From positions 46,068-110,067 of the forward strand of contig NZ_FNFZ01000008.1 of assembly GCF_900101015.1 (NCBI RefSeq): a stretch of 64,000 bases of DNA, given 5' to 3'. Under the pieces are notes generated by a model. It made no database searches, was not told the DNA's origin, and saw only the letters and a program-made list of their open reading frames with translations. Source of the DNA: Sarcina sp. DSM 11001. GTDB taxonomy: Bacteria > Bacillota > Clostridia > Lachnospirales > Lachnospiraceae. Positions 37,118 to 43,394 of the stretch are shown here, piece after piece (position 1 is the first letter of the stretch; each line of letters begins with the position of its first letter). The position numbers and the translations under genes are program-made.

Positions 37118-39530
37118 CCTTTCCGTCCCCCATCTCCAGGATCCTCTCCCGGAGTCCTGTATAGCGGTGTGTCCTTTGTGTATTCGCGATCATCCTGTCC
37201 ACCGCGCCGCGGCTGCCCAGCATGACGACGCATTTTCTTGCGCGGGTGACCGCCGTATAAAGAAGGTTCCTGTTGAACAGGCCCGACGGTCCCGACAGAA
37301 GAGGGAGGATGACCGCGGGGTACTCCGACCCCTGGGATTTGTGGACCGTGATCGCATAGGCCAGGTCCAGATCCTCCAGGTCGGAAAACTGATATTCCAC
37401 CATTCTCGCGTCGTCAAAACAGACCGTCATCACTTTTCTGCCGGGGTCGATCTCCATGATCCTTCCGAAATCCCCGTTAAAGATCCCCGTCCCCTGTTCG
37501 ACCGGCATCCCGAAGTTGCCGCGGATCTCCCACTCGATACTGTAATTGTTGCGGGTCTGCATGACCTTGTCCCCCTCCCGGAAGACCGTATCGTGGTCTT
37601 CATGTTCCCGCTTCCCCGCGGCCGGAGGGTTCAGCACACTCTGCAGGACCTCGTTGAGCCTGGCGACTCCCAGGTTCCCTCTCCGCATAGGAGTCAACAC
37701 CTGAATATCCTCAGGCCTGCAGCCCACATATCCCGGCAGCATCTGCCGGATCAGCTGCACAGTGTGTTTATAGATCACAGGGACCTGGTCTCTCTCGAGA
37801 AAAAAGAAATCCCTGCTCTTGTTGTCCATGGGGAGGGAGGTCCCCTCCAGGATCCGGTGGGCATTCATGACGATATCACTTTCGCTCGCCTGCCGGAAGA
37901 TATGCCGGAGCATGATCGTGTGGAAGGAGCCGGACTCTATGAGATCCTGCAGGACACAGCCCGGCCCGACGCTCGGGAGCTGATTGACATCCCCGACCAT
38001 CACCAGGCGGGCCCCTGCGGGCACTGCCATGAGCAGGGCGTGGAAAAGATTCATATCCACCATGGACATCTCATCTATGATGACGACATCCGCCTTGATC
38101 GGGTTATCCTTCCCCCTCTCAAAATAGGAAAAACCGCCTTGTTTTTCACCGGCAGAGCCGCCGGCGGAATATTCCCTGCCCGCATCCGGGAAACCGCCCT
38201 CCCCGGGATCACTGTCTTCAGGGCTCCGCACACCCAGAAGCCTGTGGATCGTCATGGCCGGATATCCCGTCGCCTCCGACATTCTCCGGGCAGCGCGCCC
38301 CGTGGGCGCCGCCAGGACGACCTCCAGTTTTTCCCCCTTGAAAAAGCGGATGATCGTGTTGATCGTAGTGGTCTTGCCTGTACCCGGCCCGCCTGAGATC
38401 AGGAGAACGGCATTGGAGGCCGCCTCCAGGACTGCTTTCCTCTGCAGGGGATCGAGGGTGATCTTTTCCTCCTTCTCCAGGGCGGAGATCCTGTCCTCCA
38501 TTTTCCGGAGAGCGGCCTTGTCTTTTGAGGATCCCCGCAGACGGGCGTCCAGGTCCAGCAGCATACGGGCGATCTCCTGTTCTCTCCGGTATACACCGGT
38601 GAGATAGACCTCTGCCTCTGACCGGTCCTCCCCTCTCCAGCGGATCTTCAATCTCCCTTCGATCGCCAGATTCTCCATCTGCAGGAGGACCTCGTCGGGA
38701 GGAAGCCTGAGCAGTTCGCCCGTCCTCTTCAGGAGGATATCCCGGGGAAGAAAGCTGTGGCCTTCTCCCGAAGCCATGAACAGATTGTAGAGCAGGCCGC
38801 TCCGGATCCTGTATTCCGAATCTGCCCGGATCCCGATCCTGCGGGCGATCTCGTCCGCTGTCGCAAATCCGATCCCCCGGATATCCTCGGCGAGCCTGTA
38901 GGGGTTTGTCTTCATGATCTCATACAGGCACATACCATAAGTCTGCCAGATCCTCGAAGCATGCGCGCTGCCGATCCCGTATTTCTGCAAAAAGATCATA
39001 GCATCCCGCAGGTCCTTTTTATCCTCCATCTGGGCGCCGATCTCCCTGGCGATGTTCAGGCTGATGCCTTTTACCCTTGCCAGCTTTTCCGGTTCCTCTT
39101 CCATGACCCGAAGAGTGTCGTCGCCGAACATTTTTATGATCCGGGCGGCCATGGCGGGCCCGATCCGCTTGATGCTCCCCGCGGCCAGATAGCGGTACAT
39201 TGCCTGCGCGTTCTCAGGGGCGATCATCCGATAGGACCGGACACGCAGCTGTTCTCCGTACACAGGATGGGTGGTATATTCGCCCTCCACGACGCAGCTT
39301 TCGCCTTCACTGATGGAGACCGGATAGCCGACGCAGGTCATGACATCACCCAGCTCAGAGGTGTCCGGCTGCTCTGCTGAGCCCGCCTGGCCGGTGCCGG
39401 TCCTGGTCCCACTGTCGGAGCCGGCCCTGTTTCCGTTGTCGGAGCCGGTCAGTGTCAGTTCAAAAACGGTATAGCTGTTCTCTTCATTGCGGTAGACAAT
39501 GTGCGATACGAAGCCTTTGTATGCGGTCAT
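37101..39530 (-). CDS. recD2: RecD2-type 5'–3' DNA helicase
   Basis: 809 residues. An N-terminal OB-like and helix–hairpin–helix region (GSIKRIGPAMAARIIKMFG) is followed by a superfamily 1 helicase with Walker A SGGPGTGKTTTINT, DEAD-like VVIIDEMSMVD, and the late motif YAITVHKSQGSEY. The long N-terminus is typical of RecD2, which acts without RecBC in replication-fork repair. A Gly/Ser/Thr/Asp-rich insertion lies at residues 29–61 and another between the Walker motifs (PEDSDPGEGGFPDAGREYS). AGGAGA precedes the start. Confidence 0.95.
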   Translation of the reverse strand: MTAYKGFVSHIVYRNEENSYTVFELTLTGSDNGNRAGSDSGTRTGTGQAGSAEQPDTSELGDVMTCVGYPVSISEGESCVVEGEYTTHPVYGEQLRVRSYRMIAPENAQAMYRYLAAGSIKRIGPAMAARIIKMFGDDTLRVMEEEPEKLARVKGISLNIAREIGAQMEDKKDLRDAMIFLQKYGIGSAHASRIWQTYGMCLYEIMKTNPYRLAEDIRGIGFATADEIARRIGIRADSEYRIRSGLLYNLFMASGEGHSFLPRDILLKRTGELLRLPPDEVLLQMENLAIEGRLKIRWRGEDRSEAEVYLTGVYRREQEIARMLLDLDARLRGSSKDKAALRKMEDRISALEKEEKITLDPLQRKAVLEAASNAVLLISGGPGTGKTTTINTIIRFFKGEKLEVVLAAPTGRAARRMSEATGYPAMTIHRLLGVRSPEDSDPGEGGFPDAGREYSAGGSAGEKQGGFSYFERGKDNPIKADVVIIDEMSMVDMNLFHALLMAVPAGARLVMVGDVNQLPSVGPGCVLQDLIESGSFHTIMLRHIFRQASESDIVMNAHRILEGTSLPMDNKSRDFFFLERDQVPVIYKHTVQLIRQMLPGYVGCRPEDIQVLTPMRRGNLGVARLNEVLQSVLNPPAAGKREHEDHDTVFREGDKVMQTRNNYSIEWEIRGNFGMPVEQGTGIFNGDFGRIMEIDPGRKVMTVCFDDARMVEYQFSDLEDLDLAYAITVHKSQGSEYPAVILPLLSGPSGLFNRNLLYTAVTRARKCVVMLGSRGAVDRMIANTQRTHRYTGLRERILEMGDGKDGGFS

Positions 39531-39602
39531 GGGGGTCTCCTGGTCGTGGATGGCGGGGTGGGTATATCAGGCTTTTTACCCGGGGCTTGCAATTTTAGGG
39601 GC

Positions 39603-39854
39603 GAACCATAGTCGGCAAGTGTCTCTTCGACTTCAATATGTCTCGTGAAGATGTACTAAGACAGTCAATGTGCGTCGGGAGGGCCGGCTTTAACTCGAAT
39701 TCCGAGTTGAAGACTCGGAATTCTCAGACACGGACGCCTAAAATGCCCGTCTGTGAGAGACGGGCATTTTACCCTCCCTCCCGCACATTTCCCGTCAAGT
39801 ACATCTAACACTCGCCATAATTCAGTCTCACAGACACATTGCCTCCTATGGTTC
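39603..39854 (+). ncRNA. Candidate structured RNA, copy 1
   Basis: A 252-base stem-closed element. Outer stem: GAACCATA, GGCAA and TGTCT (39603–39624) pair with AGACA, TTGCC and TATGGTTC (39832–39854). Inner closing stem: GATGTACT (39650–39657) with AGTACATC (39798–39805). Next GTGCG and GGGAGGG pair with CCCTCCC and CGCAC. Two hairpins follow: 10 bp with loop TGAAG (39698–39722) and 13 bp with loop GTGAG (39740–39770). The joining strands GGGCCGGCTTTAACTCG and CTCAGACACGGACGCCTAAA recur in the second copy, while stems change but still pair. The GTGA (GNRA-like) loop suggests the plus strand is the RNA. Multi-hairpin, stem-closed layout recalls HEARO/omega-RNA elements; this identity is unproven. 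Confidence 0.7.
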
Positions 39855-39877
39855 TACAACTCGCTATACTGAAAATT

Positions 39878-39975
39878 CAAGACTCGCTCGTAAGTCTTGC
39901 GCGCTGGATGGGTGTTGACATGTCTTGCTTTTCAAAGACATGTCAACACCTTCCGCACATGCGAAGCATGTGCGG
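39878..39975. other. Cluster of strong hairpins between the two RNA-like elements
   Basis: Three hairpins in 100 bases: CAAGACT/AGTCTTG (39878–39899), a perfect 16-bp stem GGTGTTGACATGTCTT with its complement (39911–39926, 39935–39950), and CCGCACATGC/GCATGTGCGG with a GAA loop (39953–39975). The rest of 39855–40163 has further weak stems and no credible gene. Confidence 0.75.
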
Positions 39976-40163
39976 CCGCTTTCGTGCTGCATATTTCCCT
40001 TTTTGCGCGATGAAGAATAAATCTGTAAAAGCGCTCTGCTGTAGTCAAATTTGAAAATAAACATTCATATATTTCAGAAAAAGCTATGCTTTTCCTGCGG
40101 CGGCGGACACAGTCCTCCGCATATTCTCTTCTCATTTTCCGGTGAGTGGCAGTCAGAACCGGA

Positions 40164-40398
40164 GCAGGAATATGTCCTGGCGGAATCTCTATTTCTGAGT
40201 GTTAGATGTACTTGACGGATGGAGGGCGGATGAAGGGCAAATCGCACGGCCCTCACGGCCGGGCGATTTAGGCGTCCGTGTCTGAGCAGACCGTGCCTTC
40301 AGCACGGGATGCGAGTTAAAGCCGGCCCGAAATCCGCACGGAAACCGTCCTTAGTACATCTTCACGAAGAAAGCGAGATTCCAAGGGACATATCCTGC
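40164..40398 (-). ncRNA. Candidate structured RNA, copy 2 (opposite orientation)
   Basis: Reverse-oriented relative of 39603–39854. Outer stem: GCAGGAATATGTCC (40164–40177) pairs with GGACATATCCTGC (40386–40398), and GGAATCTC (40182–40189) with GAGATTCC (40375–40382). Inner closing stem: 40205–40212 with 40353–40360, identical to copy 1. Hairpin 1 (40291–40307, CCGTGC/GCACGG) keeps the TGAAG loop on the RNA strand. Hairpin 2 (40239–40269) keeps the GTGAG loop, with a completely different stem that still pairs. Conserved joining strands are the same as in copy 1. The two copies converge. Confidence 0.7.
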
Positions 40399-40430
40399 GA
40401 GGATTCATCCCCGCCCCGGCTCCCGCTCCC

Positions 40431-43394
40431 TTACTTGTGCAGCATCTTATTCACATAATACCCCGTATAGGAATCATGCCTCCCGGCAATTTCCTCAGGG
40501 GTCCCGCAGGCCACGACGGTGCCTCCGCCTTCCCCGCCCTCGGGTCCCATGTCGATGATGTAATCGGCAGTCTTGATGACGTCGAGGTTGTGCTCGATCA
40601 CGACGGCGGTATTGCCGCCCTCGACAAGTTCGCGCAGGATACTGGTCAGCTTGGCGACGTCGTCAAAATGGAGGCCGGTGGTGGGCTCGTCCAGGATGTA
40701 GATGGTCCTGCCGGTGCTCTTGCGGGAGAGCTCGGTGGCCAGCTTGATGCGCTGGGCTTCGCCGCCGGAAAGCTCGGTGGAGGGCTGGCCGAGTTTGACA
40801 TAGCCCAGTCCGACGTCGTAAAGGGTCTGGATCTTGCGGCGGATGGTCGGTATGTTCTCAAAGAAGGGCAGGGCTTCCTCGACGGTCATCTCAAGTACGT
40901 CGGAGATGTTTTTGCCCTTGTAGCGGACCTCCAGGGTCTCGCGGTTGTAGCGCTTGCCGTGGCAGACCTCGCAGGGGACGTAGACGTCCGGCAGGAAATG
41001 CATCTCGATCTTGATGATGCCGTCGCCGGAGCAGGCTTCGCAGCGGCCGCCCTTGACGTTAAAGGAAAAGCGGCCTTTGGCGTAGCCCCGGGCGCGGGCG
41101 TCCTGGGTGCCGGCAAAGAGGGACCGGATCAGGTCAAAGACGCCGGTATAGGTCGCGGGATTGGACCGGGGAGTGCGGCCGATGGGGGACTGGTCGATGT
41201 TGATGACCTTGTCCAGCTGCTCGATTCCCTCGATATCGTCATGCTGTCCGGGGATGGTCCGGGCACGGTTGAGGTCACGGGCCAGGCGTTTGTAGAGGAT
41301 CTCGTTGACCAGGGAGCTCTTGCCGGATCCGGATACGCCGGTCACGACCGTGAGCACACCAGTGGGGATGTCTACGTCGATGTGCTTGAGGTTGTTGACA
41401 GCCGCGCCGCGCACATGGAGCCAGCCGGTGGGCTCGCGCCGCTTCGCAGGGACCGGAATTTTCTTTTTGCCGGAAAGGTACTGGCCGGTTATGGATTCCG
41501 GGACGGCCATGATCTCCTCTGCTGTGCCGCAGGCGACGATCTCGCCGCCCCGGGAGCCGGCGCCGGGTCCGATGTCCACGATGTAGTCGGCAGCCCGCAT
41601 GGTGTCCTCGTCGTGTTCGACGACGATGACCGTGTTCCACATGTCGCGGAGGTTTTTCAGGGTGTGCAGGAGCTTGTCGTTGTCGCGCTGATGAAGGCCG
41701 ATGCTGGGCTCGTCCAGGATGTAGCAGACGCCGACCAGGCCGGACCCGATCTGGGTCGCCAGGCGGATGCGCTGGGCCTCGCCGCCGGACAGGGTCGCCG
41801 TGGCGCGGGCCAGAGTCAGGTAGTCGAGGCCGACGTCATTGAGGAAGCGGACCCGGGCCCGGATCTCCTTGAGAACCTGCTTCCCGATCATCTCCTGGGT
41901 CTTTGTGAGCTCGAGTTCCTCCAGGTATTCCTGCAGTTTTTTGACGGACATGCAGGTCAGGTCATAGATGTTGATCCCGCCGACCGTGACGGCCAGGGAC
42001 TCCTTTTTCAGGCGGCGGCCGCCGCAGGTCTCGCAGGGTGTGATCTGCATGAAGGTCTCATATTCCGCCCGCATGGTCTCGGAAGCGGTCTCGCGGTAGC
42101 GGCGGCGGGTGTTTTCCAGGATGCCCTCGAAGACGACGGGATAAATCCCCTTGCCCCGCTGGCCTTCATAGTAAACGTCCACACTGTGGTCGGCACCGTA
42201 CATGAGCATATGGCGGACCCCGTCCGGAAGGTCCTTCCAGGGGGTCTTGAAATCAAAGCCATATTCCTTGGCCAGAGCGACCAGGATGGCGTTGGCAAAG
42301 CTTCCTTTATTCATGCAGGACTGCCAGCCCAGGACAGCAATGGCTCCGTCATTGATCGACAACCGCTCGTCCGGAATGATCAGGCGGGGATCGAACTCCA
42401 TGCGGTAGCCCAGGCCGGCGCAGTCGGGGCAGGCGCCGAAAGGATTGTTAAAGGAAAAGCTGCGGGGTTCGATCTCGGAAATGCTGACCCCGCAGTCCGG
42501 GCAGGCGAAGCTCTGGGAGAACTGCAGGAGCTCTCCTCCGACGACATCGGCCTGGACCAGACCGTCGGAGAGTCCCAGGGCATTCTCCACGGAGTCGGTC
42601 ATGCGGCGCTCCGTGCCGGGGCGGATGACCAGACGGTCTATGACGATCTCGATATTATGCTTGATGTTTTTGTCGAGGGTGATGTCCTCGGAGACATCGT
42701 ACAGGTTACCGTCGACCCGGATGCGGACATAGCCGGCGCGGCGGGCGCGGTCGATGACCTTTTCATGGCGGCCCTTGCGGCCGCGGACGACCGGAGCCAG
42801 GATCTGGACGCGGGTGCCCTCCGGCAGCGCCATCAGCTGGTCCACCATCTGGTCGACGGTCTGTTTCGCGATCTCGCGCCCGCAGTTGGGGCAGTGGGGC
42901 GTGCCGATCCGGGCGTAGAGCAGGCGGAAATAGTCATAGATCTCCGTCACCGTTCCCACGGTCGACCGGGGGTTGCGGTTGGTCGACTTCTGGTCGATGG
43001 AGATGGCGGGCGAGAGGCCCTCGATATTCTCCACGTCCGGCTTCTCCATCTGCCCCAGGAACTGGCGGGCGTAAGAGGACAGCGACTCCATATAGCGCCG
43101 CTGTCCTTCTGCGTAGATCGTATCAAAAGCAAGGGAGGATTTACCCGATCCTGACAGGCCGGTCAGAACGACCAGCTGGTTGCGGGGGATGGAGACATCG
43201 ATTCCCTTGAGGTTGTGCTCGTTGGCTCCCCGGATCTTGATGCAGTCCTCCGCATAAATCTGTTTCCTGCGTTCCGCGTCGATCTCCCGCTGGGCCAGGG
43301 CCTTCTTTTCATTCTCTGCCAAGGCCGGCCAATAGTCCGGTCTGCGCATTTTGACTGCACTGCCCTTACCGGCATCAGTTTTCTGATTTACCAT
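40431..43394 (-). CDS. uvrA: Excinuclease ABC subunit A
   Basis: 987 residues; about 45 precede the usual UvrA start region ([17 protein letters not shown]), the first 30 being lysine-rich. Two ABC ATPase modules carry [14 protein letters not shown] and [13 protein letters not shown] as Walker A, and [12 protein letters not shown] and [12 protein letters not shown] as signatures. Zinc-finger cysteines occur at [13 protein letters not shown] and [17 protein letters not shown]. UvrA finds bulky DNA lesions and loads UvrB. UvrB lies upstream on the same strand but is separated by an accessory gene. Confidence 0.98.

What the first reader, a model, noticed from the sequence alone, without database searches (positions are those of the whole stretch)
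39603..40398. Two opposed copies of an undescribed-looking structured RNA with compensatory stem changes
Seen: the elements at 39603–39854 and (reverse) 40164–40398 share unpaired or joining sequences almost exactly (GTGAAGATGTACTAAG, GGGCCGGCTTTAACTCG, CTCAGACACGGACGCCTAAA, CCGTCAAGTACATCTAACAC). At least four stems have different sequences in the two copies yet pair in both: outer stem, second closing stem, hairpin with TGAAG loop, hairpin with GTGAG loop. That is the signature of selection on RNA structure. Known: HEARO/omega RNAs, which accompany IscB/IsrB in IS200/IS605-like elements, are of similar size, stem-closed and often found without their protein gene. Inference: this may be such a pair, or a new class. 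I cannot confirm identity.
Basis: partly seen in the sequence, partly recalled or inferred. Interest (0 to 1): 0.88.

Follow-up and report, generated by a model that had tools for sequence, protein, structure and literature searches.

The report
Mobile DNA element with folded ends
What looked like two copies of an unknown structured RNA is most likely the two ends of one small repeated bacterial DNA element, whose elaborate fold appears to be kept as DNA rather than as RNA and probably helps the element to be copied around the genome.

Summary
Both copies fold far better than shuffles. A model of the 163-position core hits at least 27 of 62 genomes of the genus. In 87 aligned copies, 60 of 62 base pairs show changes on both sides. 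Rfam has no match.

Three results point to DNA. (1) In the outer stems G.U pairs are no commoner than A.C mismatches (133 against 147); 6S RNA of the genus gives 65 against 18. (2) Neighbouring copies are tail-to-tail in 31 of 31 cases, so the pair is one unit, here about 39580-40419. (3) It is dispersed: the uvrA-recD2 gap is 16-209 nt in 26 of 30 genomes examined, 903 here, and similar copies lie elsewhere in this genome.

Best reading: a non-autonomous, REPIN/MITE-like element whose ends are roughly 250-nt branched single-stranded-DNA folds, probably moved in trans by a Y1/HUH transposase. The enzyme link is weak: none of 20 such genes examined has a module nearby. Transcription and movement were not tested.

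The parts
39580..40419 (.). whole element (about 840 bp) between recD2 and uvrA; ends set at the inverted CCGGGGC/GCCCCGG and uncertain by about 10 nt
   Evidence: similarity to the copies on contigs C48 (L003) and C47 (L004) runs to 39570-39573 on the left and to 40423 on the right; L003 keeps the same right end after an internal deletion; most related genomes examined lack it at this site
39580..39586 (+). left terminal inverted repeat CCGGGGC
   Evidence: sequence; near the boundary of similarity among copies
40413..40419 (-). right terminal inverted repeat (GCCCCGG on +)
   Evidence: sequence; retained in L003
39603..39854 (+). folded module 1 (outer stem plus core), read 5'-3' on +
39647..39810 (+). 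conserved core of module 1 (three-way junction; AACTCG/CTCAGACA internal loop; TGAAGA loop)
   Evidence: model R1, 182.7 bits
40164..40398 (-). folded module 2 (outer stem plus core), read 5'-3' on -
40200..40363 (-). conserved core of module 2
   Evidence: model R1, 153 bits
39855..40163 (.). spacer between the 3' ends of the modules; no long reading frame (longest 71 aa with a TTG start, 68 aa from ATG); holds a 16-bp perfect hairpin at 39911-39950
39871..39958 (+). separate dispersed repeat lying inside the spacer
   Evidence: 24 of 36 matches of the element in its own genome begin in this part only

Best explanation
The stretch at about 39580-40419 is one non-autonomous, repeated DNA element. 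Its two ends are inverted copies of a branched fold of about 250 nt. Each end consists of a short terminal palindrome or inverted repeat, an outer imperfect stem of roughly 45 pairs, and a 160-nt core: a three-way junction with two internal loops and apical loops of conserved sequence. The fold acts as single-stranded DNA (or an extruded cruciform), not as RNA. When the strand is single, for example on the lagging-strand template, each end folds, and a DNA-processing enzyme that reads the unpaired letters (AACTCG, CTCAGACA, the TGAAGA loop, the TTCGC/GCTCA joint) binds, cuts at the terminal repeats and moves or copies the unit. The likeliest enzyme is a Y1/HUH transposase of the RAYT/TIRYT kind acting in trans. 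Shown: the fold, the covariation with little or no G.U preference, the tail-to-tail unit, dispersal, empty sites and deletion derivatives. Inferred: single-stranded DNA as the active form, recognition of the loops, and movement. Weakly supported: the identity of the enzyme.
For: Structure. DNA-type pairing: outer stems of 92 of 93 distinct copies, 4264 Watson-Crick, 133 GT, 147 AC. Core P2/P3 arms 27 GT, 42 AC over 85 copies. Core on the fitted alignment 120 GT and 87 AC of 5012 cells, and 17 against 26 of 2985 in the 37 best pairs. Control, 30 6S RNAs of the same genus (the best 30 of 46; 11 of the 30 over Rfam's cut-off): 65 GT, 18 AC by the same symmetric method, and 182 GT, 18 AC of 1251 by RNAalifold pairs. 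One unit: 31 of 31 neighbouring pairs tail-to-tail, none head-to-head or same-strand. Dispersal: copies of module 1 on C48 and C47 at 95.3% and 96.0% identity over 277 and 251 bp with other flanks. Boundaries: similarity between copies often ends some 45-90 nt upstream of the core at short terminal motifs. Empty sites. Derivatives: L003 keeps both ends with most of module 2 lost; C33 holds only the collapsed outer palindrome; L369 and L354 are similar. Enzyme: any Y1 gene in 25 of 27 module genomes against 19 of 35 others, Fisher p 0.0015; long RAYT-like Y1 (read by eye from a truncated list) in 16 of 27 against 8 of 35, p 0.0045 (hits, tests). In G041 and G001 the palindrome with core GGGGACGGTTCTC flanks three examined Y1 genes and also forms the outer ends of module pairs.
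Against: None of 20 long-Y1 loci examined has a module within the 3.4-6.5 kb fetched (best match E 0.078). Only 4 of those 20 share any terminal repeat with modules, the fourth (L316) only with modules of another genome. In G003, G045, G060 and others the repeats around the Y1 genes (CCCCAGAGGTC) differ from the module ends. G046 has 7 modules and no Y1 hit; G049 has one and no Y1 hit. The association is not corrected for kinship or genome size, and one search misses some copies, so the split into module and other genomes is rough. G.U counts that lean the other way: 120 against 87 over all cells of A4, 45 against 34 in the 41 best pairs when G.U counts as paired and 97 against 61 by RNAalifold, 28 against 10 in the first hairpin arm. 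No autonomous copy carrying a transposase was found. Terminal sequences differ between host groups, so several enzymes may be involved. No target-site duplication or excision was demonstrated.
Confidence: 0.55

Rival explanations
1. A structured non-coding RNA (new class, or omega/HEARO-like), transcribed from each copy.
For: Strong fold and covariation; conserved unpaired letters fixed on one strand; the antisense strand scores far lower with the model (e.g. 182.7 against 37 bits); a mild G.U excess in some counts.
Against: No G.U preference in the outer stems, unlike 6S RNA of the same genus. The one promoter-like site found in 39400-40600 (40450-40477) lies outside the element, and one is expected by chance. 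The 5' ends of both modules are the ends of a dispersed element, so a promoter would have to lie in varying flanks. No Rfam match. A variant in which both strands are transcribed and both modules must fold would also suppress G.U and is not excluded.
Confidence: 0.12
2. The palindromes are kept by mutation, not selection: template switching in hairpins turns quasi-palindromes into perfect ones, so double changes arise in one step and G.U is not favoured.
For: Double changes are unusually frequent at short distance: at 85-93% identity 147 double against 152 single changes in modules, and 15 against 134 in 6S. In G352 a module has 186-nt arms, 94% complementary, as fresh snap-back copying would give.
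Against: It does not explain conserved unpaired letters, the constant branched plan, or the strict tail-to-tail arrangement. At 93-99.5% identity singles still outnumber doubles, 27 to 5.
Confidence: 0.15
3. MITEs of ordinary DDE-type insertion sequences; the folded modules are passive cargo or spacer.
For: Terminal motifs differ between host groups. GGGGCTGTCGCA ends occur as solo palindromes without a module. The MITE layout fits.
Against: Does not explain why the inner 160-nt fold and its loops are kept across many sequence clusters with different ends. No target-site duplication is evident by eye at the window copy or at L003.
Confidence: 0.13
4. A folded single-stranded recombination or replication site of another kind (attC-like, Xer-type, or a strand-initiation site), with the paired arrangement as its functional form.
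For: attC sites are folded ssDNA thought to be recognised by structure despite little sequence conservation (start of the abstract of PMC2727003 in the listing). Two module pairs have a gene between them (L386/L382, 191-aa P-loop protein; L075, 173 aa).
Against: attC is described by an RYYYAAC consensus (passage in PMC8632094); that motif was not looked for here. The two gene-bearing pairs may be chance neighbours. No integrase was searched for.
Confidence: 0.05

Closest known systems
REPINs (inverted REP doublets) and RAYT/TnpA-REP transposases
   Same: Inverted dimers of palindromes, largely between genes, repeated, non-autonomous, with letters kept outside the stem (passages of PMC6006769 and PMC3733652)
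   Different: REPs are 20-40 bp and many carry a GT[AG]G tag at one end. Here each unit is about 250 nt with a three-way junction, and none of 20 Y1 genes examined has a module beside it
TIRYT elements (terminal-inverted-repeat-associated tyrosine transposases; GGGGWSAS repeats)
   Same: In G041/G001 the module pairs end in GGGGACGG or GGGGACAG palindromes like those around Y1 genes there; dimeric TIR families are described (passage)
   Different: The passages read mention no large inner fold in published TIRs; other host groups have other ends
attC sites and the attC-like OTH-22-1 motif
   Same: Precedent for DNA, not RNA, structure found through covariation (passage of PMC8632094)
   Different: Size, plan and paired layout; RYYYAAC and integrase genes were not looked for
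HEARO / omega RNA
   Different: No Rfam match; pairing not RNA-like; no recurrent protein neighbour seen
Bacterial MITEs and fold-back elements, e.g. haloarchaeal palindrome-associated transposable elements (recalled; only a search listing seen)
   Same: Short, no gene, inverted ends, deletion derivatives
   Different: Covarying branched core with conserved loops at each end

Membership tests
HEARO / omega RNA | match to the Rfam covariance model | tested here: not met
   no match at gathering score; permissive scan of 39400-40500 gives 6 hits, all to other families and below gathering
HEARO / omega RNA | RNA-type pairing (G.U tolerated) | tested here: not met
   GT 133 against AC 147 in outer stems; 6S control 65 against 18; some core counts show a mild GT excess
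HEARO / omega RNA | IscB/IsrB/TnpB gene nearby or in autonomous relatives | tested here: inconclusive
   no recurrent protein neighbour among the 25 largest clusters of an all-against-all comparison in 85 loci; no dedicated IscB/TnpB profile search was run
REPIN / RAYT | two palindromic units in inverted orientation as the unit | tested here: met
   31 of 31 pairs tail-to-tail
REPIN / RAYT | unit 20-40 bp, simple hairpin with GTAG/GTGG tag | tested here: not met
   core alone 163 positions, branched; no common GT[AG]G seen by eye at the ends listed
REPIN / RAYT | Y1 transposase gene flanked by the same repeats | tested here: inconclusive
   terminal palindrome shared with 4 of 20 Y1 loci, modules with none of 20
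TIRYT element | GGGGWSAS terminal repeats around a Y1 gene | tested here: inconclusive
   similar ends in G041/G001 only; consensus taken from PMC3733652 and PMC6006769
attC site | RYYYAAC / GTTRRRY ends (the second recalled) and an integron integrase | not tested
   neither was searched for
MITE of a DDE insertion sequence | target-site duplication and an autonomous element with the same ends | tested here: inconclusive
   no duplication evident by eye at two copies; two terminal patterns searched in 13 genomes; the 30 loci returned show modules, solo palindromes, derivatives and one IS3-like neighbour, named from recall
Mobile, dispersed element in general | near-identical copies with different flanks and empty sites in relatives | tested here: met

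The most novel reading that the evidence does not exclude
A new class of genetically encoded folded single-stranded DNA: a 160-nt three-way-junction DNA motif with sequence-fixed loops, kept in dozens of diverged sequence clusters, its close-set copies always tail-to-tail in the cases seen, and read by a dedicated, still unidentified DNA-processing protein of Lachnospiraceae. It would be the most elaborate covarying natural DNA fold known to me (from recall).
Probability: 0.3. Interest if true: 0.88.

Novelty: new variant of a known kind. Interest (0 to 1): 0.7.

Why it matters
Comparative searches usually take covariation as a sign of RNA. Here is a large family with near-complete covariation that fails a simple RNA test, G.U tolerance, in its outer stems and is built like the ends of a mobile element. 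If right, it shows that bacteria keep branched single-stranded-DNA folds far larger than REPs. It gives a cheap filter (G.U against A.C counts) for RNA-discovery pipelines, and a system in which folded-DNA recognition by transposases can be tested directly.

Tried and rejected
Rfam at gathering and permissive thresholds: nothing. HEARO: rejected as above. Phage and plasmid records: no match to the 856-bp query. IMG/VR: 2 pattern matches, neither with a model hit. One search reports 84 stretches and lists 80, of which 65 carry titles of uncultured Lachnospiraceae. Of the 82 stretches listed I searched 46 with the model; the other 36 were left out, mostly as contigs already read through genome handles. 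Of the 46, 28 have a hit at E <= 0.01. The 18 without include Blautia schinkii (2), Paenibacillus (2), Sva0996, Omnitrophota, Chlorogloea and Woesearchaeota, taken as chance, two S27M_St_58 stretches, and several Lachnospiraceae stretches, some cut by contig ends.

A gene partner beside modules: ORF clustering over 85 loci gave, in the 25 largest clusters printed, frames inside modules and shared chromosomal neighbours. A transposase gene bounded by the module ends: not found. Wider spread: 3 genomes besides the own one among 397 sampled of the family; none besides the own among 392 sampled of the order, where the 20 others listed are all of the same family and 371 are not listed. In both runs only 7 candidates per genome were scored, so these are lower bounds; too is a lower bound (47 candidates per genome; several UBA3692 contigs with model hits are not in it). 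A gene carried between modules (L075, L386) may be chance and is not claimed as cargo. Nine literature searches showed no description of this family; only open-licence PMC papers were searched. Read: passages of PMC6006769, PMC3733652 and PMC8632094, plus one section of PMC6006769; of other papers only the search listing with the start of the abstract.

Rows dropped before counts: 13 antisense overlaps of stronger hits among the 121 matches (108 kept); the antisense L154 row and one duplicate row of A4, cores over 90% alike and copies with under 60 nt of flank (93 kept), and one copy with fewer than 14 outer pairs, the L209 and L253 pairs, whose second module was not in the list used. Counts against the no-G.U claim: the P5a hairpin gives 28 GT against 10 AC (24 T.G pairs come from its last position next to the loop, column 95, which I regard as part of the loop); one search gives 120 against 87 over all cells; one search gives 45 against 34 in 41 pairs, and RNAalifold on the modules 97 against 61 over all and 56 against 33 in the first 35 rows. 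RNAalifold and the fitted model select pairs in favour of G.U; the flank test does not. The 6S control used the 30 fetched of 46 matches, 19 of them below Rfam's cut-off.

Full report
WHAT IS THERE. Their joining sequences are identical over 22 and 18 nt, and a 101-nt stretch is 79% complementary. Each folds as one long branched hairpin, better than any of 200 shuffles, with RNA parameters (z -11.2 and -7.5) and with DNA parameters (z -10.5 and -7.5). From outside in, the plan is: outer imperfect stem; a joint (TTCGC / GCTCA in many copies by eye, TCGT / CTC here); two stems; a three-way junction; one arm with the AACTCG / CTCAGACA internal loop and a TGAAGA-type apical loop; a second hairpin arm. 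The most constant letters over the 85 distinct copies are in or next to unpaired stretches: AACTCG, CTGA, CTCAgACA.

A FAMILY. A pattern search found two more copies in the same genome and copies in three relatives. A covariance model of the core (R1) then hit 27 of the 62 genomes held for the genus, a lower bound because only some candidates per genome are scored. Over 85 sources, 121 matches reached E <= 0.01. Thirteen were antisense images of stronger hits and were dropped, leaving 108. A collection-wide pattern scan reports 84 stretches; of the 80 listed, 65 carry titles of uncultured Lachnospiraceae. Model hits also occur in Eubacteriales S27M_St_58, in a Clostridia bin and in one Fibrobacter bin, which may be contamination. 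In 397 genomes sampled across the family, 3 besides the own one matched. In 392 sampled from the order, only the own one did; both runs scored few candidates per genome.

COVARIATION. On 87 copies aligned to R1 (A4), 60 of 62 pairs have at least one change on both sides, 86.1% of cells pair, and the covariation score is 0.628 against 0.171 (sd 0.005) in shuffles and at most 0.105 when partners are slid. The alignment was fitted to the model, so the absolute values lean towards it.

NOT RNA-LIKE. If one RNA strand were selected, G.U should be tolerated and A.C not. To avoid any bias of the model, the outer flanks, which R1 does not cover, were aligned with a scheme that treats the two mismatch kinds alike: 92 of 93 distinct copies have an outer stem, with 4264 Watson-Crick, 133 G.T and 147 A.C (binomial p 0.44). 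The same method on 30 6S RNAs of the same genus (loci, 11 of them over Rfam's cut-off) gives 65 G.T and 18 A.C; by RNAalifold pairs 6S gives 182 and 18 of 1251. The core P2/P3 arms give 27 and 42, and the second hairpin arm 6 and 13. In A4 there are 120 G.T and 87 A.C cells of 5012, and in the 37 best-paired columns 17 and 26 of 2985. Against this, the first hairpin arm gives 28 and 10, 24 of the 28 probably from one loop-closing position; if G.U counts as paired when the best columns are picked, 45 and 34 of 3312; and RNAalifold on module alignments gives a G.T excess, 97 against 61 over all rows and 56 against 33 in the first 35. Even these ratios, 1.3 to 1.7, are well below 6S except in that one arm. 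I conclude that the pairing is kept at DNA level. A model in which transcripts of both strands must fold would also lack G.U and remains open.

ONE UNIT WITH ENDS. Where two modules lie within 1.3 kb, they are tail-to-tail in 31 of 31 cases, with spacers of 123 to 1083 nt. Copies of related modules often lose similarity some 45-90 nt upstream of the core, at short motifs such as AAATACGGGTTTG, GGGGCTGTCGCA, TCACACAGGGGACGGTTCTCTGTGTGA or, in this genome, close to CCGGGGC; other comparisons stop earlier or run on. In the window I set the unit at 39580-40419, ending in CCGGGGC / GCCCCGG, uncertain by about 10 nt. The copy on C48 keeps both ends but has lost most of module 2. C33 holds only the outer palindrome with a 3-nt loop. 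Similar collapsed forms and solo palindromes occur in other genomes.

INSERTION. uvrA and recD2 (domains) lie in the same order within about 1.2 kb in 30 of 30 loci examined, these being the 30 fetched of 60 genomes with a match. The gap between them is 16-209 nt in 26, 903 nt here, 731 nt in G010, which carries a single diverged module, and 1150-1210 nt in two that have another gene between. So this site is empty of modules in most relatives examined. No target duplication is evident by eye at the window copy or at L003.

HOW IT PROBABLY WORKS. Inverted dimers of palindromes, repeated between genes and without coding capacity, are the hallmark of REPINs and of TIR dimers. Those are attributed to Y1/HUH transposases that act on folded single strands (passages of PMC6006769; PMC3733652). 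The module pair has that topology with each palindrome grown to about 250 nt. Any Y1 gene is present in 25 of 27 module genomes and 19 of 35 others (p 0.0015), long RAYT-like ones in 16 of 27 and 8 of 35 (p 0.0045); neither is corrected for kinship (hits, tests). In G041 and G001 the same GGGGACGGTTCTC palindrome flanks Y1 genes and ends module pairs; GGGGACAG fits the GGGGWSAS motif of TIRYT repeats. But none of 20 Y1 loci has a module nearby, and other host groups have other ends. So the HUH step is a lead, not a finding; I give it about 0.4, against about 0.8 for a DNA-level folded mobile element.

RIVALS. RNA in one or both senses; mutational upkeep of palindromes by template switching, which the high share of double changes at 85-93% identity would fit (147 double and 152 single against 15 and 134 in 6S) but which does not explain fixed loops; MITEs of DDE elements with passive folds; another folded recombination or initiation site.

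NOVELTY. No Rfam family matches, and nine literature searches in the open PMC library (listed under Tried and rejected) show no description. Topology and behaviour belong to the known kind of non-autonomous palindromic elements; the size, the branched covarying fold and the fixed loops do not. Hence: new variant of a known kind, with a fair chance of a new class of structured DNA.

Noticed in passing
window 39871-39958: A different small palindromic repeat sits in the spacer; 24 of the 36 matches of the element in its own genome are to this part alone.
   Followed up: partly
L386 5055-5584 and 6387-6740 (G352, another genus): Modules with very long arms (186 nt at 94% complementarity; about 100 nt in two runs), and a gene for a 191-aa P-loop protein between the two.
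   Followed up: partly
L075 2281-3263: A 173-aa reading frame without Pfam match lies between two tail-to-tail modules of different appearance.
   Followed up: partly
L070, L075, L077 (G037, G008, G011): In three genomes a module lies beside the same gene pair, which I take from recall to be phoH-like and ybeY-like.
   Followed up: no
L078, L092, L075 outer arms: The outer arms are duplicated in tandem or nested, in L078 on both sides, as if one palindrome had been laid around another (by eye).
   Followed up: no
L324 (G009), uvrA-recD2 gap: A solo palindrome of about 55 nt with a GGGGACGAACC motif occupies the same gap.
   Followed up: no
L378, L374, L375, L380: Solo GGGGCTGTCGCA-type palindromes without a module; some module pairs carry the same palindrome at their ends.
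   Followed up: partly
L202 3191-3350: One module in a Fibrobacter MAG (UBA4309), either a transfer or a contaminating contig.
   Followed up: no
G099: A genome in 4 contigs of the same genus has 38 Y1 transposase matches but no module hit.
   Followed up: no
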